Origin: a virus
DNA: 26,789 nucleotides
Strand: one strand, 5' to 3'
IMG/VR virus record: IMGVR_UViG_3300017960_000052
Location: 1 to 26,789 of that record
The position numbers and the translations under genes were made by a program. The notes beneath the pieces were generated by a model. That model searched no databases, had not been told where the DNA came from, and saw only the letters and a program-made list of their open reading frames with translations. Of the stretch, positions 2,684 through 23,755 are shown in pieces (positions within the stretch are counted from its first letter, which is position 1; each line of letters opens with the position of its first letter).

Positions 2684-5600
2684 ATGGCCGCATCCGACGT
2701 GAACCTTCAGAACGACAGCGTGGCAGCGGACATCAGCCGCCGCGCCCGCGACGAAGAGGACGCGCTGGACCGCGCTGTCCGACGCAGCGTGGCACCGGCC
2801 CCGGTCGACGACTCCGACATCTTCGGAGACCCGGCCGCACCCGCGGCAGGAAGCCCCTCCGCCGGTGGGGACCCGGGCGCCCGCCCCACCGACCCCGAAG
2901 GACGCCCGCTCATCGGGTGGGATGTCCTCGCGGCCCCCGTCACGGGGATCGTGCGGGGTGCGGCGGAGGCGGTCGACACCGTCGGCGACCTGATCGGTCA
3001 GGACTTCGATCTGTCCGGAGCGGTGGATGACGCCGCCGAGGGCACGGTCTTTGAGCTCGACACCCCCGCCGACCATCTCGTCGGGTCCCTCTCGCAGTTC
3101 GCCGTCCCCTTCGGCGCTGCGTTCAAGGGCCTGAAGATGATCAACTTCATGCAGAAGGGCTGGCGGGCCTCCGCAGCGGCCGGCGTCATCGCCGACTTCG
3201 CCGCCTTCGACCCCGACGAGGGCCGCCTCTCGGACCTCATCAACGAGCACTTCACCGCCCTCCAGAACCCCGTCACCGAGTGGCTCGCCACCGACGAGGA
3301 AGACACCGCCCTCGAGGGCCGGATGAAGAACGCCGTCGAGGGCCTCGGCCTGGGCCTCGTGGGGGAAGCGCTCGCCCGCTCCTTCCGCGGGAGCAAGGCG
3401 ATCAAGGGCGCGGTCGACGACCTGAACTTCAAGACCACGCCCGAAGACTTCGCGAAGATCGACCCCGAGTTCCGAACCGACCTGTTCGCCCAGGCGGAGA
3501 ACGTGAAGGTCGCCCGCGAGCGGGTCGACATCCTCATGTCCGCCCGCGAGCAGCTGATGGCTCTCGACGAGGCCGACCCTGCCTTCATCAAGGCCCGGGA
3601 GTACCTCAAGGCCAAGGCCGCCGGCAACGCCGACCTCCCCAAGCTCTCCGACGAAGCCGCCGCCCTGGTTGCCGACGCCGAGTACCGCGCCACCTCCTAC
3701 GGTGAAGATGCGCTGGGCGCCCTCAACGCCCGGGCTGCCTCCGCCCGCGAGCTCTCGCCCCTCGCCGCCCTCGAGAAGGACGACCCGAACCTCGCCAAGA
3801 CGGTTCGCGAACTGATCGACGACGAGGACCAGCTGGGCAGCCTCTCCAACACCTCCGAGCTCTCCAACTTCATCGCCGAAGAGACGGAGAACCTGAAGCA
3901 CGCCCTGGTGGAATGGGAGCGTGTCCGCACCGACGCCCGGTGGGACGAGCTCGCCCCCGGCATCCAGCGCTCCATCGACGAGGGGGTGACGGCCAACCGC
4001 CGAGCTCCCGACTCCGGCTTCCGCTTCCTCCAGATCGAAAGGGACTCCGATGACCGCATCCGCTCCGTCCTCGAAGGACAGGGCCGCAGCGCCTCAGCCC
4101 CCGGACAGCTCCGCATCATCGACGATGCGGGAACGCCTCGGGCCGGTGTGGTGGAGCCTCGTCGCGTCTCTCGAACGAAGGGCGTACTTGGCGGCGCTGC
4201 GCGTCTCGACCCTGAGCAGCTCACTCGCCTGAACCGCGCCGTTCAGGAGGGCGACGCCCAGGGTGTCGGCGCGATCCTCGCCGAGGGGACGAACATGAAC
4301 TACGTCCTCTCCGACGACAACCGCGTGCGGAACCTCTACGCCGAACTCGGCCGCATGTACGACGACGCCGGCAAGGGGACCAAGCGCTCCCTCGAGGAGA
4401 CCCGAAAGCGGGCCGACGAGCTCATGGCCGACATGGGCCGCTCCGCCAACGAGGACCCCGCTCAGCTCGAGCGCTTCCTCGACGAGGTCATGCCCGGGAG
4501 CAACCTCCCGTCCGACGTGAAGATCACCGCCCTCCGGACCATGGAGGCGATGACCATGCAGCGCACGATGGAGCTCACCGAGCAGGTCCTGAACGGAGCG
4601 AGCAACGCCCGCACCGTGGCGGAGATGATGCAGGCTTCCCAGGCCGCCCTCCGCCTCAACGACGCCCGCCGCTTCCTCTCCGCCGACCTCGCCCGGGGCC
4701 TGAACGCCCACAAGATCCCCGTGCTGGGAGAGGGAGCTCTGCCTCCCCAGGCCATCGAGATCATCCGCGAGGGCGGAGACCCTACCTTCATCGCCAAGCG
4801 AATGCGCGCGGCCATGCAGGGTGGGCCCGACGCCATGACGAGCCTCCGCAAGGAGCTCGAGAACCCGAAGATGAAGGCGCTGTCCGGCTACTGGTACGCC
4901 TCCCTCCTTTCGGGACCCATCACCCACATGGTCAACATGGGCTCGAACGCCGGCATCGCCGTGCTCCGGCCCGTCGAGGACATCGTGGGTGGGCTGGTCG
5001 AGGGCGCCTTCAAGGGCGACTTCCGCCGGGCCCAGGAAGGTGTCGAAGCCGTCCATGACCTCGTGCGTTCCCTGCGCGGCAGCTTCAAGGCTGCGGCCAT
5101 CGCGTTCGACGTGGGCGAGTCCCAGCTGGGCAAGGCCATCACCCCGTTCGATGCCCCCGAGCTCGCCTCGCGTGGCCCCCTCCATGCCCTGACGGAGGGC
5201 AAGAACGGGCCCCTCTACTCCATGACCCGGGCCTTCTCCACGGTCCTGGGCGTCCCCGGCCGCCTCCTGGTGGCAGAGGACGAGATGTTCCGAGGGGTCA
5301 ACTACTTCGTTCATGCCCGCCGGGCCGCGCGCCGCCACCTCCGGCAGACCCAGCCGAACCTGAAGGGGTCGGACTTCGAGAGCCAGCTCGAGCAGCTGAC
5401 CCAGGATGCCCGCCACTGGTCCGAGTTCTCCAACCGCCTGTCGGTCGAGAAGCGGGCCGAGCTCCGGGCCATCCACGAGGGAGCCCTCAACGAGGCCCGG
5501 TACAGCACCTTCACCAACGACCTCGAGTACGGGATTGGCAAGAGCCTCCAGACCTTCCAGCACAACCACCCCTGGTTCCGCCTCATCATGCCGTTCGTCC

Positions 5601-8591: not shown

Positions 8592-8856
8592 GCGCGCCCG
8601 CGATTGGCGATGGTGGGGAGAGCAGATCGTCCACTTCGTTGCGATCGGTGCTGCTCCCGTCTCCCTCTCCCTCTGGGTGGCCCACTCGGTCCATCCGGTG
8701 GCGGGTGGAGCGGCAGGGGCGGCCTGGGTTGCAGGCGTGCGTGAGTTCGATCAGCGGCCCGTCGGCTCGTGGGGAGACCTGCTTGTCGATGTCGCCTTCA
8801 CCATCGCCGGCGGTGCAACTGCGGGCGCATTTCTCCTTCTGAAAGGAGGCCACTGA
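8572..8856 (+). CDS. Small multi-span membrane protein, holin candidate
   Basis: A 94-residue protein. I place the start at 8572 because GGAGGGA lies just upstream; an in-frame ATG at 8464 has no such site and would add a low-quality Ser/Thr/Gly stretch. Two or three hydrophobic segments are visible: about residues 17-38, a short Ala/Gly one at 45-56, and about 70-91. The pattern GEQIVHFVAIG, then REFDQRPVGSWGDLLVDVAF, resembles a common family of small phage membrane proteins of unknown function. Its location between the spanins and TerS makes it a holin candidate. It shares a weak layout similarity with the early gene at 17809. Confidence 0.6.
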   Translation: MSRTLRERARDWRWWGEQIVHFVAIGAAPVSLSLWVAHSVHPVAGGAAGAAWVAGVREFDQRPVGSWGDLLVDVAFTIAGGATAGAFLLLKGGH

Positions 8857-9098
8857 TGGCCACCCGTGAAGACCTACAAGACCTCCAGTCCGAGATGGTC
8901 TCCCTACTCCGGCAGAAGATCCGAGATGGGACGGCCACCGCCTCGGACCTGAAGGAGGCCAACTCCCTGCTCGGACGCAACGGGGTCCTCGCCCGGTCCT
9001 CCGACAGCGTAACCGAGCTCGCCGACGAACTGGCCGACGAGACGGGCGACTCCGGCCTCGAGAACCTGCCCCCGCCCGGGACCCACTACCACAACTAG
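8856..9098 (+). CDS. Terminase small subunit (TerS), gp18-like
   Basis: An 80-residue protein that should recognise viral DNA for packaging and work with TerL. The segment LLRQKIRDGTATASDLKEAN, followed by LLGRNGV (about residues 17-43), is the helical motif seen in T7 gp18-type small terminases, where a helix is followed by DGxATxxDLxxAxxxLxxNGI. T7 gp18 is 89 residues. The start is fixed by AAAGGAGG about 8 bases upstream, and the ATG overlaps the preceding stop as TGATG. The C-terminus is acidic and ends PPPGTHYHN. It is separated from TerL only by the small Acb2-like gene. Confidence 0.85.
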   Translation: MATREDLQDLQSEMVSLLRQKIRDGTATASDLKEANSLLGRNGVLARSSDSVTELADELADETGDSGLENLPPPGTHYHN

Positions 9099-9109
9099 GA
9101 GGAGAGCTC

Positions 9110-9331
9110 ATGCTCACCGACGAAGAGATCAGCGACCGAGTCAACTACCACACCCCCACGCCGAAGGGGGTCACCCGCCATGCGAAGCTGTCTGTCGCCG
9201 CAGAAGCCTTCATCCAGGAGATCAACAAGGTCGTCCCGGATGGCAGGGAGAAGAGTCTGGCGATCACCAACGCCGAACAGGCCAAGTTCTGGGCCAGCGC
9301 TGGTGTGGCCCGGAATCCAGACACGGTATAA
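9110..9331 (+). CDS. Acb2/Tad1-hairpin-type protein, predicted anti-CBASS cyclic-nucleotide sponge
   Basis: A 73-residue protein whose C-terminal half reads DGREKSLAITNAEQAKFWAS, followed by AGVARN (about residues 44-69). This matches the pattern I know for Acb2-family proteins, (S/G)REKSLAxTxLExAxxWANAxIARN, and the N-terminus with EEISDRVNYHTPTPKGV also fits (xxIxxRFxYHxPxxxQ). Acb2 proteins assemble as hexamers that sequester cyclic di- and trinucleotide signals, thereby blocking CBASS (and related) abortive defence. The gene has a strong AGGAGGAG before its ATG and lies between TerS and TerL, so it would be expressed late with them. The family call rests on motif recall; nucleotide specificity cannot be read here. 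Confidence 0.75.
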   Translation: MLTDEEISDRVNYHTPTPKGVTRHAKLSVAAEAFIQEINKVVPDGREKSLAITNAEQAKFWASAGVARNPDTV

Positions 9332-9343
9332 CAGGAGGCCCTG

Positions 9344-11134
9344 ATGGCCGAGTCCCCCAGCGAGAAGGCACGAGCCAAGAAGGAGTTCCGCGCCTTCCTC
9401 TACCTCATGTGGCGCTTCCTCCAGCTGCCCCCGCCCACCCGCTCCCAGCTCGCCTTCGCCGACTACCTTCAGTACGGCCCCAAGCGGAAGGTGCTCATGG
9501 CCTTCCGTGGCGTAGGGAAGTCCTGGGTCACCGCTGCCTACGTCATCTGGTGTCTGTGGAGGAACCCCCAGGAGAAGATCCTGATCGCCTCGGCCTCCGA
9601 GAAGCGGGCCGTGAAGTTCTCCTCCTTCGTCAAGCAGGTCCTCTTCGATTGGGAGATGGTGAAGGAGCTCCACCCCCGGTCCGGTCAGCGGAGCTCCATC
9701 CTCGCCTTCGACGTGGCCCCGGCCAAGCCCGCTCAGTCCATGTCGGTCATGTCCGTGGGCATCACCGGGCAGATGACGGGCGACCGTGCCCATCGGGTCA
9801 TCTTCGACGATGTGGAGGTCCCCAAGAACTCGGAGACCACCACCCAGCGAGAGAAGATCGGCGAGCTCGTCCGTGAGGCCGCCGCCCTCCTGGTCCCCGA
9901 CAAGGACCTCGAGGAGGGGTTCGAGACCGAGATCATCTACCTCGGGACTCCCCAGACCGAGGACACGCTCTACGTCAAACTGCCCGACCGTGGCTACTCC
10001 ATCCGCATCTGGCCGGCCCGCTACCCCGACCAGAAGATCCGGGACTCCTACGAAGCCCTGGGAGCGGAACTCTTCAAGGAGCTCCTCGACGACATGGAAG
10101 CGGGGGCCCGAGAGGGAGACCCCACCGACCCCGCCCGATTCGACGAGACCGACCTCCTCGAGCGGGCCAAGGAGTACGGCCCCGTCGGGTGGCAGCTCCA
10201 GTTCATGCTGAACCCCAGCCTGAGTGATGCCGAGCGCTACCCGCTGAAGCTCCGAGACCTCGTGGTCGCCGCCTTCGACCATGAGCTCGTCCCCAACAAG
10301 ATCGTCTGGTCTGGAGACCGGGAGTACACAGCGGAGGATCTAGTCTCCGTTGGGCTCTCGGGGGACAAGTTCCAGCGCCGCATGGTGGTCCGAGACTCCG
10401 ACGGCATCGAGGCGGGCGGCTACGCCCCCTTCGTCGGGGGACTCCTGACCGTTGACCCTTCGGGACGCGGCAAGGACTCCACCTCCTGGAACGTGACCAA
10501 GGTCCTCAACGGACAGATCTTCCTGGTCGCCAAGGGCCGCTTCCGCGGGGACGGCTACTCGGACACGGTCCTCGCCGGCCTCGCCCAGAAGTACGTCACC
10601 TACGGGTGCAACGCCGTCCGCATCGAGTCCAACTTCGGTGACGGCATGTTCACCCGCCTGCTCTCCCCGCACTTCGCCAAGGTGACCGGGAGGGGCCTCG
10701 ACCCCGAGGACGTCGACTTCAAGAACATGGGCATCCAGAAGGAGGCCCGGATCATCGACACCCTCGAGCCCGTGATGGCCCAGCACAAGCTGATCATCCA
10801 CGAGGATGTGGTCCGAGAGGACTACGACAAGGCCCCTCGAGAGGACCCCGATCGGCGCCACCACATGCTGTTCCACCAGATGACCCGGATCACCCGCGAC
10901 CGGGGCGCCCTGAAGTTCGACGATGACCTCGACTGCCTCGCCATGGCTGTCCACTACCACATGGAGGCCATCGGGAAGGACATCGACGAGGAGGTCCGGC
11001 AGCGGCGAGAGGACGCCCTCGACGCCGAGCTCAAGGCTTTCTCCGACGCCTACCATGCCGAGCACGGGATTCCTGTGCAGAACCGGACGTGGGGAGCTCA
11101 GGGAGGTGCGCTGGGACGGATGGGGTATCGCTAG
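9344..11134 (+). CDS. Terminase large subunit (TerL), gp19-like
   Basis: This 596-residue packaging motor (ATPase plus nuclease) matches T7 gp19 (586) along its length. The Walker A motif is FRGVGKS at residues 54-60, and Walker B is VIFDDVE at 152-158. FDVAPAKPAQSMSVMSVGIT (from about 122) and YLGTPQTEDTLY (about 202) are gp19 signatures. The RNase H-like nuclease half has LLTVDPSGRGKD with Asp371, AVRIESNFGDG with Glu428 and FDDDLDCLAMAVHYH with Asp526-530, the three acidic clusters expected for metal binding. The start has CAGGAGG just upstream. It is the last plus-strand gene before the long noncoding region, as in T7. Confidence 0.95.
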   Translation: MAESPSEKARAKKEFRAFLYLMWRFLQLPPPTRSQLAFADYLQYGPKRKVLMAFRGVGKSWVTAAYVIWCLWRNPQEKILIASASEKRAVKFSSFVKQVLFDWEMVKELHPRSGQRSSILAFDVAPAKPAQSMSVMSVGITGQMTGDRAHRVIFDDVEVPKNSETTTQREKIGELVREAAALLVPDKDLEEGFETEIIYLGTPQTEDTLYVKLPDRGYSIRIWPARYPDQKIRDSYEALGAELFKELLDDMEAGAREGDPTDPARFDETDLLERAKEYGPVGWQLQFMLNPSLSDAERYPLKLRDLVVAAFDHELVPNKIVWSGDREYTAEDLVSVGLSGDKFQRRMVVRDSDGIEAGGYAPFVGGLLTVDPSGRGKDSTSWNVTKVLNGQIFLVAKGRFRGDGYSDTVLAGLAQKYVTYGCNAVRIESNFGDGMFTRLLSPHFAKVTGRGLDPEDVDFKNMGIQKEARIIDTLEPVMAQHKLIIHEDVVREDYDKAPREDPDRRHHMLFHQMTRITRDRGALKFDDDLDCLAMAVHYHMEAIGKDIDEEVRQRREDALDAELKAFSDAYHAEHGIPVQNRTWGAQGGALGRMGYR

Positions 11135-11351: not shown

Positions 11352-11470
11352 GGTTGGGGCCTCCGTTGGGGTATGGGCGGAGAGTGTACACCGCTCGATC
11401 TGATCAGCATTTCCGAAGACCCAAACGCATACTCTCGCCGCGCGCGTTCCCCCCGGTGGGGGTGGGCCTC

Positions 11471-11690
11471 GGCGTGCGTGTGCGCGCGTGCGCGTGACGC
11501 GGGCGGGCGCGTGCGGGCGTGCGTGCGGGCGCGTGTGTGCGCGTGCGGGCGTGCGTGTGTGCGCGTGCGGGCGCGTTACGCGCGCTGGCGGGCGCGTGCG
11601 CGCGTGTGTAGCCGCTAGGGGCTCGCAGTGGTGGGGGAACTACCAGCGCGGGCGCGTGCGTGCGTGCGTGCGCGCGTGCGCGGGGGTGGG
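11471..11690. repeat. Low-complexity GCGTGC tract
   Basis: The plus strand here consists almost only of G, C and T in alternating purine-pyrimidine order, built from variants of GCGTGC, GTGTGC and GCGGGC. One 20-base unit, CGTGTGTGCGCGTGCGGGCG, occurs exactly twice at 11532-11551 and 11554-11573. A second patch with GCGTGCGTGCGTGCGCGCG lies at 11652-11676 after a short break around 11610-11645. Nothing in it has coding character: frames are open only because stop codons cannot form. Alternating CG/TG runs can adopt Z-DNA. Its place after TerL suggests a link to genome ends or to replication. Confidence 0.8.
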
Positions 11691-11739
11691 CGCAGCTGCC
11701 ACGCCCGTCCGCCTAGCTCGCGAGCCCGATCCGACAGCC

Positions 11740-16855: not shown

Positions 16856-17268
16856 CCAACATCGACACCATCGCCGCGCGGAACAAGCGCATCCAGGATC
16901 TGGAAGACGAGCTGCGCCGTCGTCAGGAGATCATCGACGACGCACGCATCCGACTCGACGATCGACTCCATCGCGCCGAAGCCGCCGAGGCCCGAGTCGC
17001 CGAGTTGGAGCGGCAAAACATCGAGCTAGAGGAAAAAGCCCGCGTGGCACCAGGGCAGTCGGTGGCACTCGTGAAGCGGACGGAGGCCAAGCTCGCCCGC
17101 GCGGATCGGCTGGCGGAGGAGGCGCAGGAGTGTATTGAAGAGCGGGAGAGCTACTGGGGCAGCCAGGAGGGGATGCACAGACACAACCCGGAGTATGAGC
17201 GACTAGAGCGAGCCCTCTCCGACTACCGCTCCGACTCCCGACCTAACAACGAAGGAGAGGAGTCATGA
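16852..17268 (+). CDS. Coiled-coil protein (138 aa), paralogue family member 1
   Basis: A 138-residue protein with an almost continuous coiled coil (residues about 8-110) rich in Arg, Glu, Ala and Leu: KRIQDLEDELRRRQEIIDDA, EARVAELERQNIELEEKAR and KLARADRLAEEAQECIEE. Part of it is shared with the genes at 18172 and 18401, including a 29-base identical stretch, so the three are copies of one ancestor. A structural or adaptor role is likely, but no partner is known. The start has GGGAGGAGG upstream; start and stop overlap the neighbouring genes. Confidence 0.65.
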   Translation: MTNIDTIAARNKRIQDLEDELRRRQEIIDDARIRLDDRLHRAEAAEARVAELERQNIELEEKARVAPGQSVALVKRTEAKLARADRLAEEAQECIEERESYWGSQEGMHRHNPEYERLERALSDYRSDSRPNNEGEES

Positions 17269-18171: not shown

Positions 18172-18408
18172 ATGCCCAACACAAGCGCACTCGCCGAAAA
18201 GAATTGGCGGATCAAGGATCTGGAGTCCAAGCTCGCCCGCGCGGATCGGCTGGCGCAAGTGCTTCGCATGGTCGAGCAGGCGATCGAAGAGGACGGGTGG
18301 CATGACCACGTAGACGATCAGGCGCATACGGTTGCCGAGTTGGTCGTCCACGAAGTCCGCGAAGCTCTCGCCGCCTACAAAGCCGGGGAGGACGAGAACA
18401 GTGACTGA
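18172..18408 (+). CDS. Coiled-coil protein (78 aa), paralogue family member 2
   Basis: A 78-residue helical protein with RIKDLESKLARADRLAQVLR (about residues 13-32) and a C-terminal VVHEVREALAAYKAGED. The DNA around LARADRLA is identical over 29 bases to that in the gene at 16852, and the end EALAAYKAGE is repeated as EALAAYEAGE in the next gene. So it is part of a duplicated coiled-coil family. The start ATG has only AAGGA about 10 bases upstream. It overlaps the following GTG start by 8 bases. Confidence 0.6.
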   Translation: MPNTSALAEKNWRIKDLESKLARADRLAQVLRMVEQAIEEDGWHDHVDDQAHTVAELVVHEVREALAAYKAGEDENSD

Positions 18409-19060
18409 CGAGATGTACGACGGACTCGACGAACGCACGCGCAACGAACTGAAGCTGGAGGCCGCCGAGGCTCGGGTAGCGGAGTTGGAGCGCAAGCTCA
18501 CCAACGCCGACCGGCTGGCGGAGGCGGTGCGCTCGATGAACGTGGCCCGATCAGCGGACACTGAGAACGTGACGGAGTGGGTGGCGGGCTACCAATCGGC
18601 GGACGCGGAGATCCGCGAAGCTCTCGCCGCCTACGAGGCCGGGGAGCCGGTGGTGCATCCGGACACGTCCGGCGGCGGCGCCGCGAACACGAAGGAGACG
18701 ACCTGTTTCCTGCAAGATAGGTCTCCGACCCACAGTCTCGGGAATCAGGGTAAACCCCCTATTGCACTCCCTGACACACCATCAGACTCTCCCCGAGTTG
18801 GACGTCACCACCCTACCGGAGCCTCCATGCTACTACTCACCCACCGCCAACCCACCACACCCTTCTTCCGGGAGTTTCGATTCGACATGCGATTCCGATC
18901 CAAGCGGTACGAAATCTGCCGCTTCCCTGACCAGGAGATCCGTCTCCAGTGGGTCACCGAACCCAAGACCGGAGACTTCTGGCTTTGGTGGGGCGCTTGG
19001 CGCCTCGTCATCTTCAACATCAGGGCCCGTCGCCCGTCCAGAATGAGTGGACAAGGGTGA
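18401..19060 (+). CDS. Coiled-coil paralogue fused in frame to a second small domain (219 aa)
   Basis: The first 95 or so residues are coiled-coil paralogue 3 (EARVAELERKLTNADRLAEA, EIREALAAYEAGEPV). Then comes a Pro/Ser-rich stretch (about 103-142) whose DNA has the look of an intergenic region, and then a distinct C-terminal part of 77 residues from an internal ATG at 18827 that is basic and aromatic (FRFDMRFRSKRYEICRFPDQ, DFWLWWGAWRLVIF). There is no stop between them. It may be one fused protein, or two genes, with the second starting at 18827 behind CGGAG. The start GTG at 18401 follows GGGGAGGA. No function is recognised. Confidence 0.5.
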   Translation: MTDEMYDGLDERTRNELKLEAAEARVAELERKLTNADRLAEAVRSMNVARSADTENVTEWVAGYQSADAEIREALAAYEAGEPVVHPDTSGGGAANTKETTCFLQDRSPTHSLGNQGKPPIALPDTPSDSPRVGRHHPTGASMLLLTHRQPTTPFFREFRFDMRFRSKRYEICRFPDQEIRLQWVTEPKTGDFWLWWGAWRLVIFNIRARRPSRMSGQG

Positions 19061-19710: not shown

Positions 19711-19896
19711 ATGACGTACCACGGGCGGAAAGCCCTGCCCCCGGCTCGAGATGGGGACACGACCGACGCCTTCAGCCGGACGTGGCGGCGCCTGCTGTGC
19801 TGCCTGGACCGACCGGGCGTCATCAAGAAGACTCGACGGCGCTTCCACAAGAAGGTCCGACGGACTGCGAAGAAGGAGCTGCGGCATGAAGGATGA
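19711..19896 (+). CDS. Small basic protein before integrase, possible excisionase or DNA-binding factor (61 aa)
   Basis: A 61-residue protein, very basic in its second half (KKTRRRFHKKVRRTAKKELR). I choose ATG 19711 because GGAGG lies about 9 bases upstream; the same frame is open further back to 19579 but runs through the palindrome. It overlaps the integrase start by 11 bases. Recombination directionality factors are often small basic proteins encoded next to the integrase, so this is a candidate, but no excisionase motif is visible. It could be a nonspecific DNA-binding peptide. Confidence 0.5.
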   Translation: MTYHGRKALPPARDGDTTDAFSRTWRRLLCCLDRPGVIKKTRRRFHKKVRRTAKKELRHEG

Positions 19897-20986
19897 GCAG
19901 GCCGAGAGGCTGATCCAATCCATCGACGCTCTCACGTCCGCTGTGAGGGCCTTATCTCTGAACCCTACCCACCCCACCAGTGGCATCGAGATCGCCCAGC
20001 CTGGGCCATCCTCCGCAGCCTCGTGGGAATCTAGTGCCCATAGTCCCTCGGTGCAGGAGATGGTCGACCGCTACATCAGCGAGCGGACATCCTCGGGGGA
20101 ATGGGGCGACGGTCACCGCGAAGCAGTCACCCACTGGCTGGGTCATATGACCACGTTCCTGGGTCCGGACAAGCCGATCGTCATGGCCGACCGGGCCGAG
20201 CTGCTCCGCTACCGGCAGCACCTCGTCGAGAACCCCAAGCGGAACGGGAAGGAGCGGCGGGCGGCGTCCACCGTGAACACCATCCTGATCCACGTCGGGG
20301 CGTTCTTCCGGTGGTGCCGGGACACGGCCGAGGTCATCGAGAAGGACCCGACGGTGAAGCTGCGGCTGAAGACGGCAGGCCGAACCCGAGAGCCCTTCAC
20401 GGATGGGGAAATCGAGAAGGTCTGGACCCGGCTGCGGGCAGATGCCCCGACCCCTGCCCACTACTGGATTCCCACCATCTGCCTCCTCACGGGGGCCCGG
20501 CGGGAGGAGGTGGCGCAGCTGAAGCGGAGCGAGGTGCTGGTGGAGGACGCCAACGGCATCCTCTTCATCGACTTCGCGGGGGCAGCGCAGGACGAGCGGG
20601 GGCTGAAGACTGCGGCCAGCGCTCGCCGGGTCCCTGTCCATCCCCACCTCCGGGGCCTCGGGCTTCAGGCGCTCGTGAACCAGGAGACGCAGGGCGAGTT
20701 CCTGTTCGATGCGTGGTGCCCGCTCAAGGCCAATGGCCTCCGGGCGGGGGCAGTGGGGGTCTGGTTCAACCAGCGTCTGCGGAAGCTGAAGGTCCCCAAG
20801 TCCAAGGTCCTGCACTCCACCCGCCACACCATGGCGACTCGGCTCAAGCAGCTGGGGGCGGAGGACTACATCATCGCCCAGATCCTGGGGCACGAGAACC
20901 CCAACATCACCACGGGACACTATGGCCACGAGGTGGACTTGGAGCCCCTGGATACATGGATTCAGCAGGTGGGATTTCCCCTCTAA
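19886..20986 (+). CDS. int: Tyrosine recombinase/phage integrase (366 aa)
   Basis: This would integrate the phage genome at an att site. The arm/core-binding part (about residues 50-150) has the SAM-like helical layout (VQEMVDRYISERTSSGEWGD, TILIHVGAFFRWCRD). The catalytic domain has all expected residues: TGARREE with Arg205, Lys241 in the beta-hairpin, HSTRH with His310 and Arg313, LGHENPN with His336 and the nucleophile Tyr346 in TTGHYGH. So it should be active. ATG 19886 has AAGGAG 8 bases upstream. Placement directly before the RNA polymerase matches other integrase-bearing T7-like phages. Confidence 0.95.
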   Translation: MKDEQAERLIQSIDALTSAVRALSLNPTHPTSGIEIAQPGPSSAASWESSAHSPSVQEMVDRYISERTSSGEWGDGHREAVTHWLGHMTTFLGPDKPIVMADRAELLRYRQHLVENPKRNGKERRAASTVNTILIHVGAFFRWCRDTAEVIEKDPTVKLRLKTAGRTREPFTDGEIEKVWTRLRADAPTPAHYWIPTICLLTGARREEVAQLKRSEVLVEDANGILFIDFAGAAQDERGLKTAASARRVPVHPHLRGLGLQALVNQETQGEFLFDAWCPLKANGLRAGAVGVWFNQRLRKLKVPKSKVLHSTRHTMATRLKQLGAEDYIIAQILGHENPNITTGHYGHEVDLEPLDTWIQQVGFPL

Positions 20987-21298
20987 TCCATAGTGGCCAT
21001 CAACGAATAGAGAGAGGGCCGGCCAACCTATAGGGTAACCCTGATGGGAGCCCTCGGAGAGGGGGAAGATCAGGGGAGCCCATGAGGAATGGATTCCTGG
21101 AGGGGGGAGATTCTCTCTCTCCTCTCCCCCCTAGTAAGAGTCCCCCTAGATCCAACCCTAAGGGTAACCCTAAGTGAACCCCTAGTAGGGGAATGGATTC
21201 GAGGAGAACAGACAGCGGGCACACCTATCCACAGGTCCGAAGCAGCGAAGCTGCAACCCATGGGGAACCCCAAGGGTACACCAAGTAGGAGGAACGAG
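20987..21298. promoter_or_regulatory. Int-RNAP intergenic region with repeats and a G/C hairpin
   Basis: This 312-base gap has no gene. AGGGTAACCCT occurs at 21032-21042 and 21161-21171 within a similar 22-base context (CCAACC before it), and related CCC/GGG palindromes (CCCCTAGTAGGGG near 21179-21191, CCCATGGGG near 21258) fill the rest. AGGGGGGAGA (21101-21110) and TCTCCCCCCT (21123-21132) form a perfect 10-bp stem with a 12-base loop, with no T-run. CTATAGGG at 21029-21036 looks like the start region of a T7-class promoter, and CATAGTGG lies at 20990. Likely roles are control or RNA processing ahead of the polymerase gene. Confidence 0.5.
21101..21132. terminator. Strong G/C hairpin between int and RNA polymerase genes
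   Basis: AGGGGGGAGA and TCTCCCCCCT pair perfectly over 10 bp with a 12-base CT-rich loop. A terminator needs a T-run, which is absent, so an RNase III-type processing site, as found between T7 early genes, or an attenuator is equally possible. Confidence 0.35.
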
Positions 21299-23755
21299 AT
21301 GGAAGACTTCCTGGCAGACCGGCAGGTCCAACTCGAGATTGAAGCCCGCGACAAGGCGGCTCAGGAATACCTCGCCAAGGTGGAGTTCCTGTCCCGAGAG
21401 GGGAACCCGGGGAACGTCGCATCCCGCCGAGCCATGACTAGCTCCAGCGTTGCCCCGCTCACCCGGGCCATCGACCGCTGGAAGGATGAGTGGGAGGCCG
21501 CCTCGGGGCGACGGCTCGGGGCCTACGCCCTGGTGAAGGACTGCCCCTCCGACCGGCTGGCCTTCCTCACGCTCCGGACCTTCCTCACTAAGGCCACCGC
21601 GCAGGGGGCCCCGCCGGCTACCGCTACCGCCACCTCGCTGGGCCGCTCGGTCGAGCGAGAGATGTGCTTCGAGAAGCTGCGGGTGGAGAAGCCCGGGGTG
21701 TGGAAGTGGCTGAAGAACAACGGGCGTCTGGATGGGGCTGCCTTCCGGTGGAAGGGGAAGGCGCTGAAGCGGGCCGCGCAGTGGGGCAACCTGGACTGGA
21801 CACCGTGGACCACCAAGCAGCAACTCCTGGTGGGTATCCACCTCCTGAACCTGCTCGAGCAGTCCCTCGGCATCTGTGAGCTCATCACCGAAACGGGCAA
21901 GGCCCACCCCCACGCCCCGCTCCGGAAGCGGAACGTCTACCAGCTGACCCCCAAGGCCCTGCGCTGGCTCGAGCAGCAGGACTACCATGACGCCTGGGCC
22001 CACCGAGTCCTGTTCCCGATGGTGGAGGAGCCGGTGCCCTGGACCGAGCCCGATGACGGGGGCTACGTCCTGTACCGGGAGTCCTTCTGCAAGACCCGGA
22101 ACCTGGAGTGGCTCGTGGACCAGACGGGGCGGGACCTCAGCGTGGTCTACTCGGCCATGAACGCTGTGCAGAGGACCCCCTTCGCCATCGTGGAGGATGT
22201 CCTCATCACCGCCGAGCACGCCTGGACGGCGGACTGGAGGGTGAAGGGGACGGCCGAGCTCGACGAGGTCCCGCTGCCCCCGGCACCCGAGGGTGTGGAG
22301 CAGGGCTCGGACGATTGGAAGATGTGGAAGGTCATGCTCGCGAAGACCCACGCCCAGAACAGGCGCCAGCGGTCCCGGAGGTTCTCCCTCCTCGCCACGC
22401 TGAAGCAGGCCAAGCACCACCGAGACGACCTCGTCTACTTCCCGGCTCAGGTGGACACGCGGGGGCGGCTCTACACCATGCCCACGGACCTGACGCCCCA
22501 GGGGCCTGACGTCCAGCGCGGGCTGCTCACGTTCGGGGAGCACAAGCGGCTGACCGACCCGGAGCAGTGGGCGTGGCTCAAGCGGCATGGGGCGAACTGC
22601 GCCGGCCACGACAAGCTGCCCTTCGCTGAGCGGGAGCAGTGGGTCGACGACAACGTGGACCTGATCGAGGCCATCGCCAAGGACCCCTTCTCCCAGCGGG
22701 AGTGGACACAGTTCGACAAGCCCTTCTCGTTCCTGTCCTTCGCCCTGGACTACGTCCATGCCCTGGAGACGGAGAGGTCCGCCCTGCCCGTCGCCATGGA
22801 CGGGACGTGTTCGGGGCTCCAGCACTACTCGGCCATGCTGCGTGACCCGCAGGGGGCGGCGGCAGTGAATCTCGCGCCGGGAGATCGGCCGAGCGACATC
22901 TACGGCACGGTGGCCACCCGGCTCGAGGCCCTACTTCAAGAGCCCTCCAAGGAGGACAGTCCCGAAGGCAGCCTCGCCCGGCAGTGGCTCGCCTCGGGGC
23001 TGGTGACCCGGACCCTCTGCAAGCGGCCCACCATGACCACACCCTACGGGGTGACGGCTCACGGTGTGCTGGCGCAGACGACCGACCTGATTCGTGGCAT
23101 CCAGCTGGAACTAGGGAGGCTCCCCTTCGAGGACGACACGGGGTGGACGGCGGTGCGGTACATCTCGCCGCTCATCCTCCAGGCCATCCACGGGGTGGTG
23201 CCCAAGGCGCTCGAGGCGATGCACACCATCCGGGCTGCGGCCGGTGCCCTTGCGGGGGCCGGGATGCAGGCGGGCTGGGTCATCCCCTCGACGGGGTTCC
23301 ACGTCCAGCAGGAGTACATCCGTGCGGCCTACCAGCGCGTCCGGACCCACCTCAATGGGGAGATCCGTTCGTTCAGGCTGCGGCTCGAGAAGGAGGACCG
23401 GAAGGTGGCCCGGGGGAAGGCAGTCGCAGCGTCGGCGCCGAACCTCGTCCACTCCCTGGATGCGGCCCACCTGATGATGACGGTGAACGCGATGGAGGCG
23501 CAGGCCCCGACCCCGGTGTCCTACGCCATGGTCCACGACTCGTTCGCCTGCCATGCGGCCGACGCCCCGCTCATGGCCCAGGTCCTCCGCGAGGAGTTCG
23601 TGCGTCTGTACGAGGGGGACCACCTTCTGGCGAACCTGATGGGGCAGATGCGGGAGGGGCTCGAGGACAAGCACCTGGAGAACTACCCGGAGGTTCCCAC
23701 CCAAGGGGACTTCGACCTCGAGCTCGTCAAGCAGAGCCCCTACTTCTTTGCCTGA
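21299..23755 (+). CDS. T7-type single-subunit DNA-directed RNA polymerase (818 aa)
   Basis: This polymerase transcribes the middle and late genes. It has 818 residues against 883 in T7. Catalytic residues are present: Asp501 in AMDGTCSGLQH (T7 D537), Lys575 in LCKRPTM (T7 K631), Tyr583 in TTPYGVT (T7 Y639), and His746-Asp747 in MVHDSF (T7 H811-D812). DTRGRLY, LKRHGANCAG and the final PYFFA (T7 ends FAFA) also match. In the promoter-reading loop, the T7 R746/N748/R756/Q758 positions appear as H/N/R/R. ATG 21299 is fixed by TAGGAGGA upstream; an in-frame ATG at 21089 would run through the repeat region. Confidence 0.97.
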   Translation: MEDFLADRQVQLEIEARDKAAQEYLAKVEFLSREGNPGNVASRRAMTSSSVAPLTRAIDRWKDEWEAASGRRLGAYALVKDCPSDRLAFLTLRTFLTKATAQGAPPATATATSLGRSVEREMCFEKLRVEKPGVWKWLKNNGRLDGAAFRWKGKALKRAAQWGNLDWTPWTTKQQLLVGIHLLNLLEQSLGICELITETGKAHPHAPLRKRNVYQLTPKALRWLEQQDYHDAWAHRVLFPMVEEPVPWTEPDDGGYVLYRESFCKTRNLEWLVDQTGRDLSVVYSAMNAVQRTPFAIVEDVLITAEHAWTADWRVKGTAELDEVPLPPAPEGVEQGSDDWKMWKVMLAKTHAQNRRQRSRRFSLLATLKQAKHHRDDLVYFPAQVDTRGRLYTMPTDLTPQGPDVQRGLLTFGEHKRLTDPEQWAWLKRHGANCAGHDKLPFAEREQWVDDNVDLIEAIAKDPFSQREWTQFDKPFSFLSFALDYVHALETERSALPVAMDGTCSGLQHYSAMLRDPQGAAAVNLAPGDRPSDIYGTVATRLEALLQEPSKEDSPEGSLARQWLASGLVTRTLCKRPTMTTPYGVTAHGVLAQTTDLIRGIQLELGRLPFEDDTGWTAVRYISPLILQAIHGVVPKALEAMHTIRAAAGALAGAGMQAGWVIPSTGFHVQQEYIRAAYQRVRTHLNGEIRSFRLRLEKEDRKVARGKAVAASAPNLVHSLDAAHLMMTVNAMEAQAPTPVSYAMVHDSFACHAADAPLMAQVLREEFVRLYEGDHLLANLMGQMREGLEDKHLENYPEVPTQGDFDLELVKQSPYFFA

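What the first reader, a model, noticed from the sequence alone, without database searches (positions are those of the whole stretch)
9110..9331. Predicted Acb2-type anti-CBASS sponge between TerS and TerL
The 73-residue protein has the REKSLAxT...E.A..WA.AG.ARN pattern of Acb2/Tad1-hairpin proteins, which sequester cyclic nucleotide alarm signals. Its place inside the packaging genes of a T7-like phage means it would be made late, when CBASS is normally triggered. Seen: the motif and the strong ribosome-binding site. Known: family function. Inferred: activity and timing.
Basis: partly seen in the sequence, partly recalled or inferred. Interest (0 to 1): 0.75.

Follow-up and report, generated by a model that had tools for sequence, protein, structure and literature searches.

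The report
Acb2-family phage signal sponge gene
A T7-like phage carries, squeezed between its two DNA-packaging genes, a tiny gene of a known family of proteins that mop up the chemical alarm signals bacteria use against phages; the family is known, but its exact target here is not, and its place in the packaging operon recurs in other phages.

Summary
Window 9110-9331 (+) encodes 73 residues, with a strong ribosome-binding site, between TerS (8856-9098) and a T7-type TerL (9344-11134). It matches Pfam PF24729 (Acb2/Tad1 hairpin) at E=6.5e-14, 52.3 bits against a 27-bit cut-off; T4 Acb2 itself scores 71.4 in the same model. AlphaFold2 (pLDDT 95) gives the Acb2 architecture; the best PDB matches are Acb2 homolog 43 and T4 Vs.4.

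Two corrections. (1) 'Anti-CBASS' is too specific: the nearest solved relative was crystallised with the Thoeris-type signal 3'cADPR. (2) The window belongs to an eight-member subclade that lost a basic residue (PaP2 Acb2 K26) kept in nearly all relatives and gained a lysine across the hairpin (S28/K59), suggesting a remodelled pocket. Y13 (T4 Y8), R46 and T53 (T4 T68) are kept.

The gene is a cassette: a sister phage (TerL 69% identical) has the same gene order without it. Relatives lie near terminase genes more often than random placement predicts (10 of 27 long contigs; 2.75 expected). In staphylococcal phages this region makes the RNA that triggers CBASS, so the placement is suggestive, but no RNA structure was found here. 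Verdict: new member of a known sponge family, with a modest variant twist.

The parts
9097..9104 (+). Shine-Dalgarno-like AGGAGGAG of the sponge gene (overlaps the TerS stop codon)
   Evidence: sequence
9110..9331 (+). 73-aa Acb2/Tad1-hairpin family protein, candidate nucleotide-signal sponge
   Evidence: PF24729 6.5e-14, 52.3 bits; phrog_1454 6.7e-17; AF2 pLDDT 95.2 and fold matches
9146..9313 (+). hairpin domain proper (residues 13-68): Y13 = T4 Y8, S28 = PaP2 K26, R46 = PaP2 R67, T53 = T4 T68, K59 charge swap
9333..9338 (+). Shine-Dalgarno-like AGGAGG of TerL
   Evidence: sequence
8856..9098 (+). TerS (T7 gp18-like), upstream neighbour in the same operon
   Evidence: PF11123 28.0 bits against cut-off 27.5; phrog_891 2.3e-5
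9344..11134 (+). TerL (T7 gp19-like), downstream neighbour
   Evidence: PF22530 1.2e-27; phrog_38 3e-109

Best explanation
It is a phage immune-evasion sponge of the Acb2/Tad1 hairpin family. It is made with the packaging proteins and binds a small cyclic nucleotide alarm signal without cleaving it, so that the host's death effector is not switched on. SHOWN here: family membership by profile, the predicted short helix plus two long antiparallel helices, conservation of residues equivalent to T4 Y8 and T68, its position between TerS and TerL, and its absence from a sister phage with the same gene order. INFERRED: assembly into a hexamer with pockets between protomers; ligand binding; late expression; which signal is bound. 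My split for the ligand, given that it is a sponge: CBASS cyclic di- or trinucleotides about 0.6, Thoeris-type cADPR about 0.3, other or both about 0.1. The lysine at position 59, opposite the lost basic position 28 in the hairpin, probably keeps a positive charge in the pocket but with shifted geometry, so the ligand preference may differ from that of PaP2 or T4 Acb2.
For: PF24729 52.3 bits against cut-off 27, the model in which T4 Acb2 (Vs.4) scores 71.4. Family profile against PDB: Acb2 homolog 43 at 3e-9 and Tad1 at 1e-4. AF2 pLDDT 95.2, helices 4-11, 18-41, 46-68. Foldseek top hit 9ptq, TM 0.74, rmsd 1.4 A, probability 1.0, then 7uq2 (T4 Vs.4-cGAMP). VIA-align Z 8.3 (9ptq), 6.9 (7uq2), 6.3 (8h2x Acb2). 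T4 Y8A abolishes nucleotide-dependent activity (PMC12657218, PMC12657230) and T68M is reported to lower affinity (PMC12657230); the equivalent Y13 and T53 are kept, T53 in all 77 relatives. Position 28 is basic in 71 of 77 relatives and in T4, PaP2, 9ptq and Tad1; all 10 members of the alignment without it carry a basic residue at 59. Cassette present here, absent in sister L093.
Against: No binding data. phmmer with the single sequence finds PDB relatives only weakly (9ptq E=0.037), and the family profile does not reach PaP2 Acb2 by sequence. Foldseek E-values are weak (0.2), as expected for a 73-residue hairpin, and unrelated helical hairpins score up to Z 6.5. The CDN-pocket basic residue is lost at its usual place, and T4 F82, which stacks on the bound dinucleotide, is Ala67 here (PaP2 also has Ala). 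The phage record is incomplete and the host, hence its CBASS or Thoeris content, is unknown.
Confidence: 0.78

Rival explanations
1. It is an anti-Thoeris rather than an anti-CBASS sponge: the pocket holds a cyclic ADP-ribose signal, as in Acb2 homolog 43.
For: Best sequence and structure match in the PDB is 9ptq, solved with 3'cADPR. Loss of the canonical CDN lysine position would fit a changed ligand.
Against: Identity to 9ptq is only about 25-27 percent; 9ptq itself keeps the basic residue at position 28 (K) and lacks Y13 (T), so it is not a close functional proxy. Residues of the CBASS-type pocket (Y13, R46, T53) are kept.
Confidence: 0.25
2. The sponge sits in the terS-terL region because that region makes the CBASS trigger: RNA from it activates the host cyclase in staphylococcal phages, so trigger and antidote would be co-transcribed.
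For: cabRNAs of diverse staphylococcal phages all map to terS/terL (PMC10686824). Hairpin-family genes lie within 2.5 kb of TerL on the same strand in 10 of 27 contigs of 25 kb or more (2.75 expected, P 2e-4) and 19 of 39 in all (8.8 expected). In the window's subclade L104 (TerL-sponge-portal) and L011 (TerL-x-sponge pair-portal) repeat the pattern; the more distant L105 fuses the hairpin to a protein just upstream of TerL.
Against: The RNA of the junction folds no better than shuffles (z +0.64). The family is also found in tail, lysis and nucleotide-metabolism regions. Enrichment may only reflect packaging-module ends being common slots for accessory genes; some contigs are near-copies. Host and trigger are unknown.
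Confidence: 0.1
3. A structural or packaging accessory (for example a terminase cofactor or small virion protein) that happens to share the hairpin fold.
For: Its position in the packaging operon and the repeated adjacency to TerL or portal.
Against: A sister phage with the same gene order lacks it; relatives occur in many unrelated genome positions and in the same Pfam family as proven sponges.
Confidence: 0.08
4. A degraded or non-binding family member kept by chance.
For: Loss of the otherwise conserved basic residue 28, and Ala at position 55 where relatives have L, I or V.
Against: Open frame, strong ribosome-binding site, invariant family residues kept, a possibly compensating lysine at 59, and a supported subclade of eight (97 SH-aLRT) with the same change.
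Confidence: 0.06

Closest known systems
Acb2 homolog 43 (PDB 9ptq, with 3'cADPR)
   Same: Closest solved relative by sequence (profile E 3e-9) and by fold (TM 0.74, Z 8.3); same short hairpin without the long loop of T4/PaP2 Acb2; shares the P.GREKS....T.LEEA motif of the family
   Different: About 25-27 percent identity; has T at the position of Y13, keeps K at 28, has F at W61; ligand of the window protein unknown
T4 Acb2 / Vs.4 (PDB 7uq2)
   Same: Same Pfam family (71.4 bits); Y8=Y13, T68=T53, W76=W61
   Different: 88 aa with a long loop between the helices; K23 replaced by S28, F82 by A67, no Arg at the R46 position; its gene lies among regB and vs genes, not in a packaging operon
PaP2/PaMx33 Acb2 (PDB 8h2x, 8h2j)
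   Same: Y11=Y13 and R67=R46 by the end points of the structural alignment and the phmmer-bridged alignment
   Different: K26 replaced by S28 (lysine at 59 instead); longer inter-helix loop; no direct sequence match
Tad1 (PDB 7uav, 8kbf)
   Same: C-terminal hairpin is homologous (profile E 1e-4; Z about 5) and carries a similar RE..xALT..EEA..W motif
   Different: Tad1 has an N-terminal beta-sheet domain that this 73-aa all-helical protein lacks
phrog_1454 proteins of actinophages and Paenibacillus phages (for example Jasmine gp9, Pharaoh gp43)
   Same: 36-45 percent identical, same motif
   Different: Basic residue 28 kept, no K59; mostly unannotated or misnamed; host and phage type differ

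Membership tests
PF24729 Acb2/Tad1 hairpin | Score above the curated cut-off over the whole domain | tested here: met
   52.3 bits against 27; profile positions 2-58 of 58
[quoted passage not shown]
   AF2 pLDDT 95.2, H4-11, H18-41, H46-68; matches 9ptq, 7uq2, 8h2x
Acb2 | N-terminal tyrosine of the dinucleotide pocket (T4 Y8 / PaP2 Y11) | tested here: met
   Y13; 70 of 77 relatives have Y
Acb2 | Basic residue on the first long helix (PaP2 K26 / T4 K23) | tested here: not met
   S28; a lysine at 59 across the hairpin may replace it. That K26 contacts the ligand is from memory of Huiting et al. 2023, not re-read
Acb2 | Arg at the start of the second long helix (PaP2 R67), supposed trinucleotide pocket | tested here: met
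   R46, invariant in 77 relatives; T4 lacks it. The role of R67 is from memory
Acb2 | Homo-hexamer | not testable with these tools
   Only single chains could be predicted
Acb2 | Binds cyclic di- or trinucleotides and inhibits CBASS in vivo | not testable with these tools
   Needs ITC/EMSA and phage challenge
Tad1 | N-terminal antiparallel beta-sheet domain before the hairpin | tested here: not met
   73 residues, all helical in the model

The most novel reading that the evidence does not exclude
Phages repeatedly place a signal sponge inside the terS-terL-portal operon because the CBASS-activating RNA is born there, so alarm trigger and antidote are made from one transcript. The window's subclade additionally moved the ligand-binding charge from helix 2 to helix 3 to change which signal is caught.
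Probability: 0.1. Interest if true: 0.75.

Novelty: new member of a known kind. Interest (0 to 1): 0.4.

Why it matters
It adds a probably temperate T7-like phage to the carriers of hairpin sponges and defines a subclade with a remodelled pocket (S/T28 with K59) that predicts altered ligand choice. It also gives a quantitative hint that sponge genes favour the packaging module, the region from which a known CBASS-activating RNA arises. Each point is directly testable with a small protein and existing assays. It also warns that 'Acb2 family' should not be read as 'anti-CBASS'.

Tried and rejected
No NCBIfam or PADLOC model fits; PHROGs lists the family as of unknown function. The junction RNA has no unusual structure, so a cabRNA-like element is not supported here. 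No sigma-70 promoter was found around the operon, uninformative for a phage with its own polymerase; repeats gave no convincing phage promoter. The residue 28-59 link is strong by Fisher test (2.7e-12), but this ignores kinship: the tree needs only 3 changes at 28 and gives 2-3 independent pairs, nearly all in the expected direction, too few for significance. Pair 28-59 ranks 34th of 1891 by corrected mutual information; 28-63 ranks second. One exception: the second hairpin copy in L011 (2563-2772) reads T28 and A59, with a lysine at 63, and was not in the test; L106 has K59 with an uncertain R28. TerS could not be confirmed by profile in L001, L103, L105 or L107. Papers with the key mutational data on PaP2 Acb2 and the survey that probably produced 9ptq (Hadary et al. 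2025; the link is my guess) are not held.

Full report
WHAT IS THERE. The window is one whole IMG/VR record of 26,789 bases. ORF 9110-9331 (+) encodes 73 residues, MLTDEEISDRVNYHTPTPKGVTRHAKLSVAAEAFIQEINKVVPDGREKSLAITNAEQAKFWASAGVARNPDTV. Its ribosome-binding site AGGAGGAG overlaps the TerS stop, and TerL follows 12 bases after its own stop. TerS is a weak but above-cut-off match (PF11123, 28.0 against 27.5 bits); TerL is clear (phrog_38, 3e-109). The gene therefore sits in a tight TerS-sponge-TerL operon.

FAMILY. The protein matches PF24729 (Acb2/Tad1 hairpin) over positions 2-58 of 58, 52.3 bits, E 6.5e-14. T4 Acb2 scores 71.4 bits in the same model. PHROG 1454 gives 6.7e-17 and is listed as unknown function. 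tblastn finds relatives in 403 phage records at E<=10, mostly of Mycobacterium, Gordonia, Paenibacillus and Streptomyces, and a profile finds at least 497 in viral contigs. The nearest are L001 (64 percent) and L107 in a bacterial MAG (58 percent).

FOLD. AlphaFold2 on 61 window and viral-contig sequences gives pLDDT 95.2 with helices 4-11, 18-41 and 46-68, the architecture described for Acb2 (PMC12043709, PMC10419184). Foldseek ranks 9ptq first (Acb2 homolog 43 with 3'cADPR; TM 0.74, rmsd 1.4 A, probability 1.0), then T4 Vs.4 and Tad1. VIA-align gives Z 8.3, 6.9 (T4 Vs.4), 6.3 (8h2x Acb2) and about 5 (Tad1); unrelated helical hairpins reach 6.5, so fold alone is weak evidence. The sequence profile carries the case.

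POCKET RESIDUES. The alignment, the Pfam coordinates and the end points of the structural alignments agree on these equivalences: Y13 = T4 Y8 = PaP2 Y11; S28 = T4 K23 = PaP2 K26; R46 = PaP2 R67; T53 = T4 T68; A67 = T4 F82. T4 Y8A destroys nucleotide-dependent activity (PMC12657218, PMC12657230), and F82 stacks on the bound dinucleotide (PMC12657218). T68M is described as lowering affinity (PMC12657230, Extended Data Fig. 7). The roles of K26 and R67 are from memory of Huiting 2023 and Cao 2024, which are not held here.

CHARGE SWAP. Position 28 is Arg in 71 of 77 relatives and Lys or Arg in T4, PaP2, 9ptq and Tad1. The window and seven others (L001, L011, L012, L014, L103, L104, L107) form a supported clade (SH-aLRT 97) with S or T at 28, K at 59 and S or T at 63. 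L058, far away in the tree, has G28 with R59; L105 has a non-basic 28 with K59. The helix ends (41 and 46) place 28 opposite 59 in an antiparallel hairpin (28+59 = 41+46), so a positive charge seems to have moved across the hairpin. This is inference: coordinates of the model were not available for measurement, the phylogenetic test has only 2-3 independent events, and a second copy of the gene in L011 has T28 with K63 instead.

CASSETTE. Sister phage L093 (TerL 69 percent identical over residues 11-444, same order of tail fibre, small membrane proteins, spanin-like genes, homologue of ORF 8464 and TerS) goes straight from TerS (stop 3947-3949) to TerL (start 3959-3961), with no PF24729 match in its 12.6 kb. 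So the gene is an accessory insert, gained here or lost there.

PLACEMENT. Of 39 records in which both genes were found, the hairpin gene lies within 2.5 kb of TerL on the same strand in 19 (8.8 expected at random); for contigs of 25 kb or more it is 10 of 27 (2.75 expected, P 2e-4) (from coordinates). Some contigs are near-copies and the null model is simple. Examples: L104 has TerL-sponge-portal with overlapping stop and start codons; L011 has TerL, one gene, two tandem hairpins, portal; L013 has the gene before a portal-like head-tail connector; L105 has the hairpin fused into a 172-aa protein just before TerL; Arthrobacter phage Jasmine has it one gene before TerL. Other relatives lie in tail genes (S-2L), between endolysin and holin (Jace), or beside thyX and ribonucleotide reductase (Remus, Pharaoh). 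In staphylococcal phages the CBASS-activating RNA comes from terS-terL (PMC10686824). A link is possible, but the junction RNA here is no more structured than shuffles.

FUNCTION. Best reading: a sponge of a nucleotide immune signal, encoded with, and probably made with, the packaging proteins. CBASS is the more likely target class from the retained pocket residues, but the nearest solved relative holds a Thoeris-type signal, and Tad1 sponges take both kinds (PMC12043709). The ligand must be measured. Such a sponge could also trigger Panoptes-type defence (PMC12657218), a simple readout.

VERDICT. Observation confirmed; interpretation right on family, over-specific on target and untested on timing. 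Kind: new member of a known family, with a subclade-specific pocket change.

Noticed in passing
window 19751-20986 and 21089-23755: A tyrosine integrase (PF00589 41.3 bits, phrog_1) directly before the T7-type RNA polymerase: this T7-like phage is probably temperate. The record runs from structural genes through TerL into early genes, so it spans a genome-end junction and is partial.
   Followed up: partly
window 21032-21042 and 21161-21171: AGGGTAACCCT occurs twice near the integrase-polymerase junction (within the D19 repeats; 0 of 100 shuffles reach the count); possibly integrase arm sites, att or a phage promoter.
   Followed up: no
window 11448-11700: GC-rich, GT-rich repetitive stretch just after TerL, about where a T7-type genome would have its terminal repeat.
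   Followed up: no
window 17082-17125, 18222-18265, 18487-18530; also 17531/17767 and 18356/18612: Repeated segments shared by small early-region ORFs (ARADRLAE-like motif), suggesting recently duplicated early genes of unknown function.
   Followed up: no
L011:2563-2772: A second, diverged hairpin gene (T28, A59, K63) lies directly before the first, between TerL and portal; record G009 (L018) also holds two PF24729 matches.
   Followed up: partly
L105:3129-3647: Hairpin domain forms the C-terminal part of a 172-aa protein immediately upstream of TerL.
   Followed up: partly
L006:2501-2701 (Cyanophage S-2L) and L005:1495-1710 (Paenibacillus phage Heath): Family members missed or misnamed in public records: unannotated among S-2L tail genes, and called 'putative phosphomannomutase' in Paenibacillus phages.
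   Followed up: no
window 8856-9098: The TerS also matches the T4 RIIA.1-like model (PF24210, 19.4 bits, below cut-off) and phrog_1683 in the same stretch.
   Followed up: no
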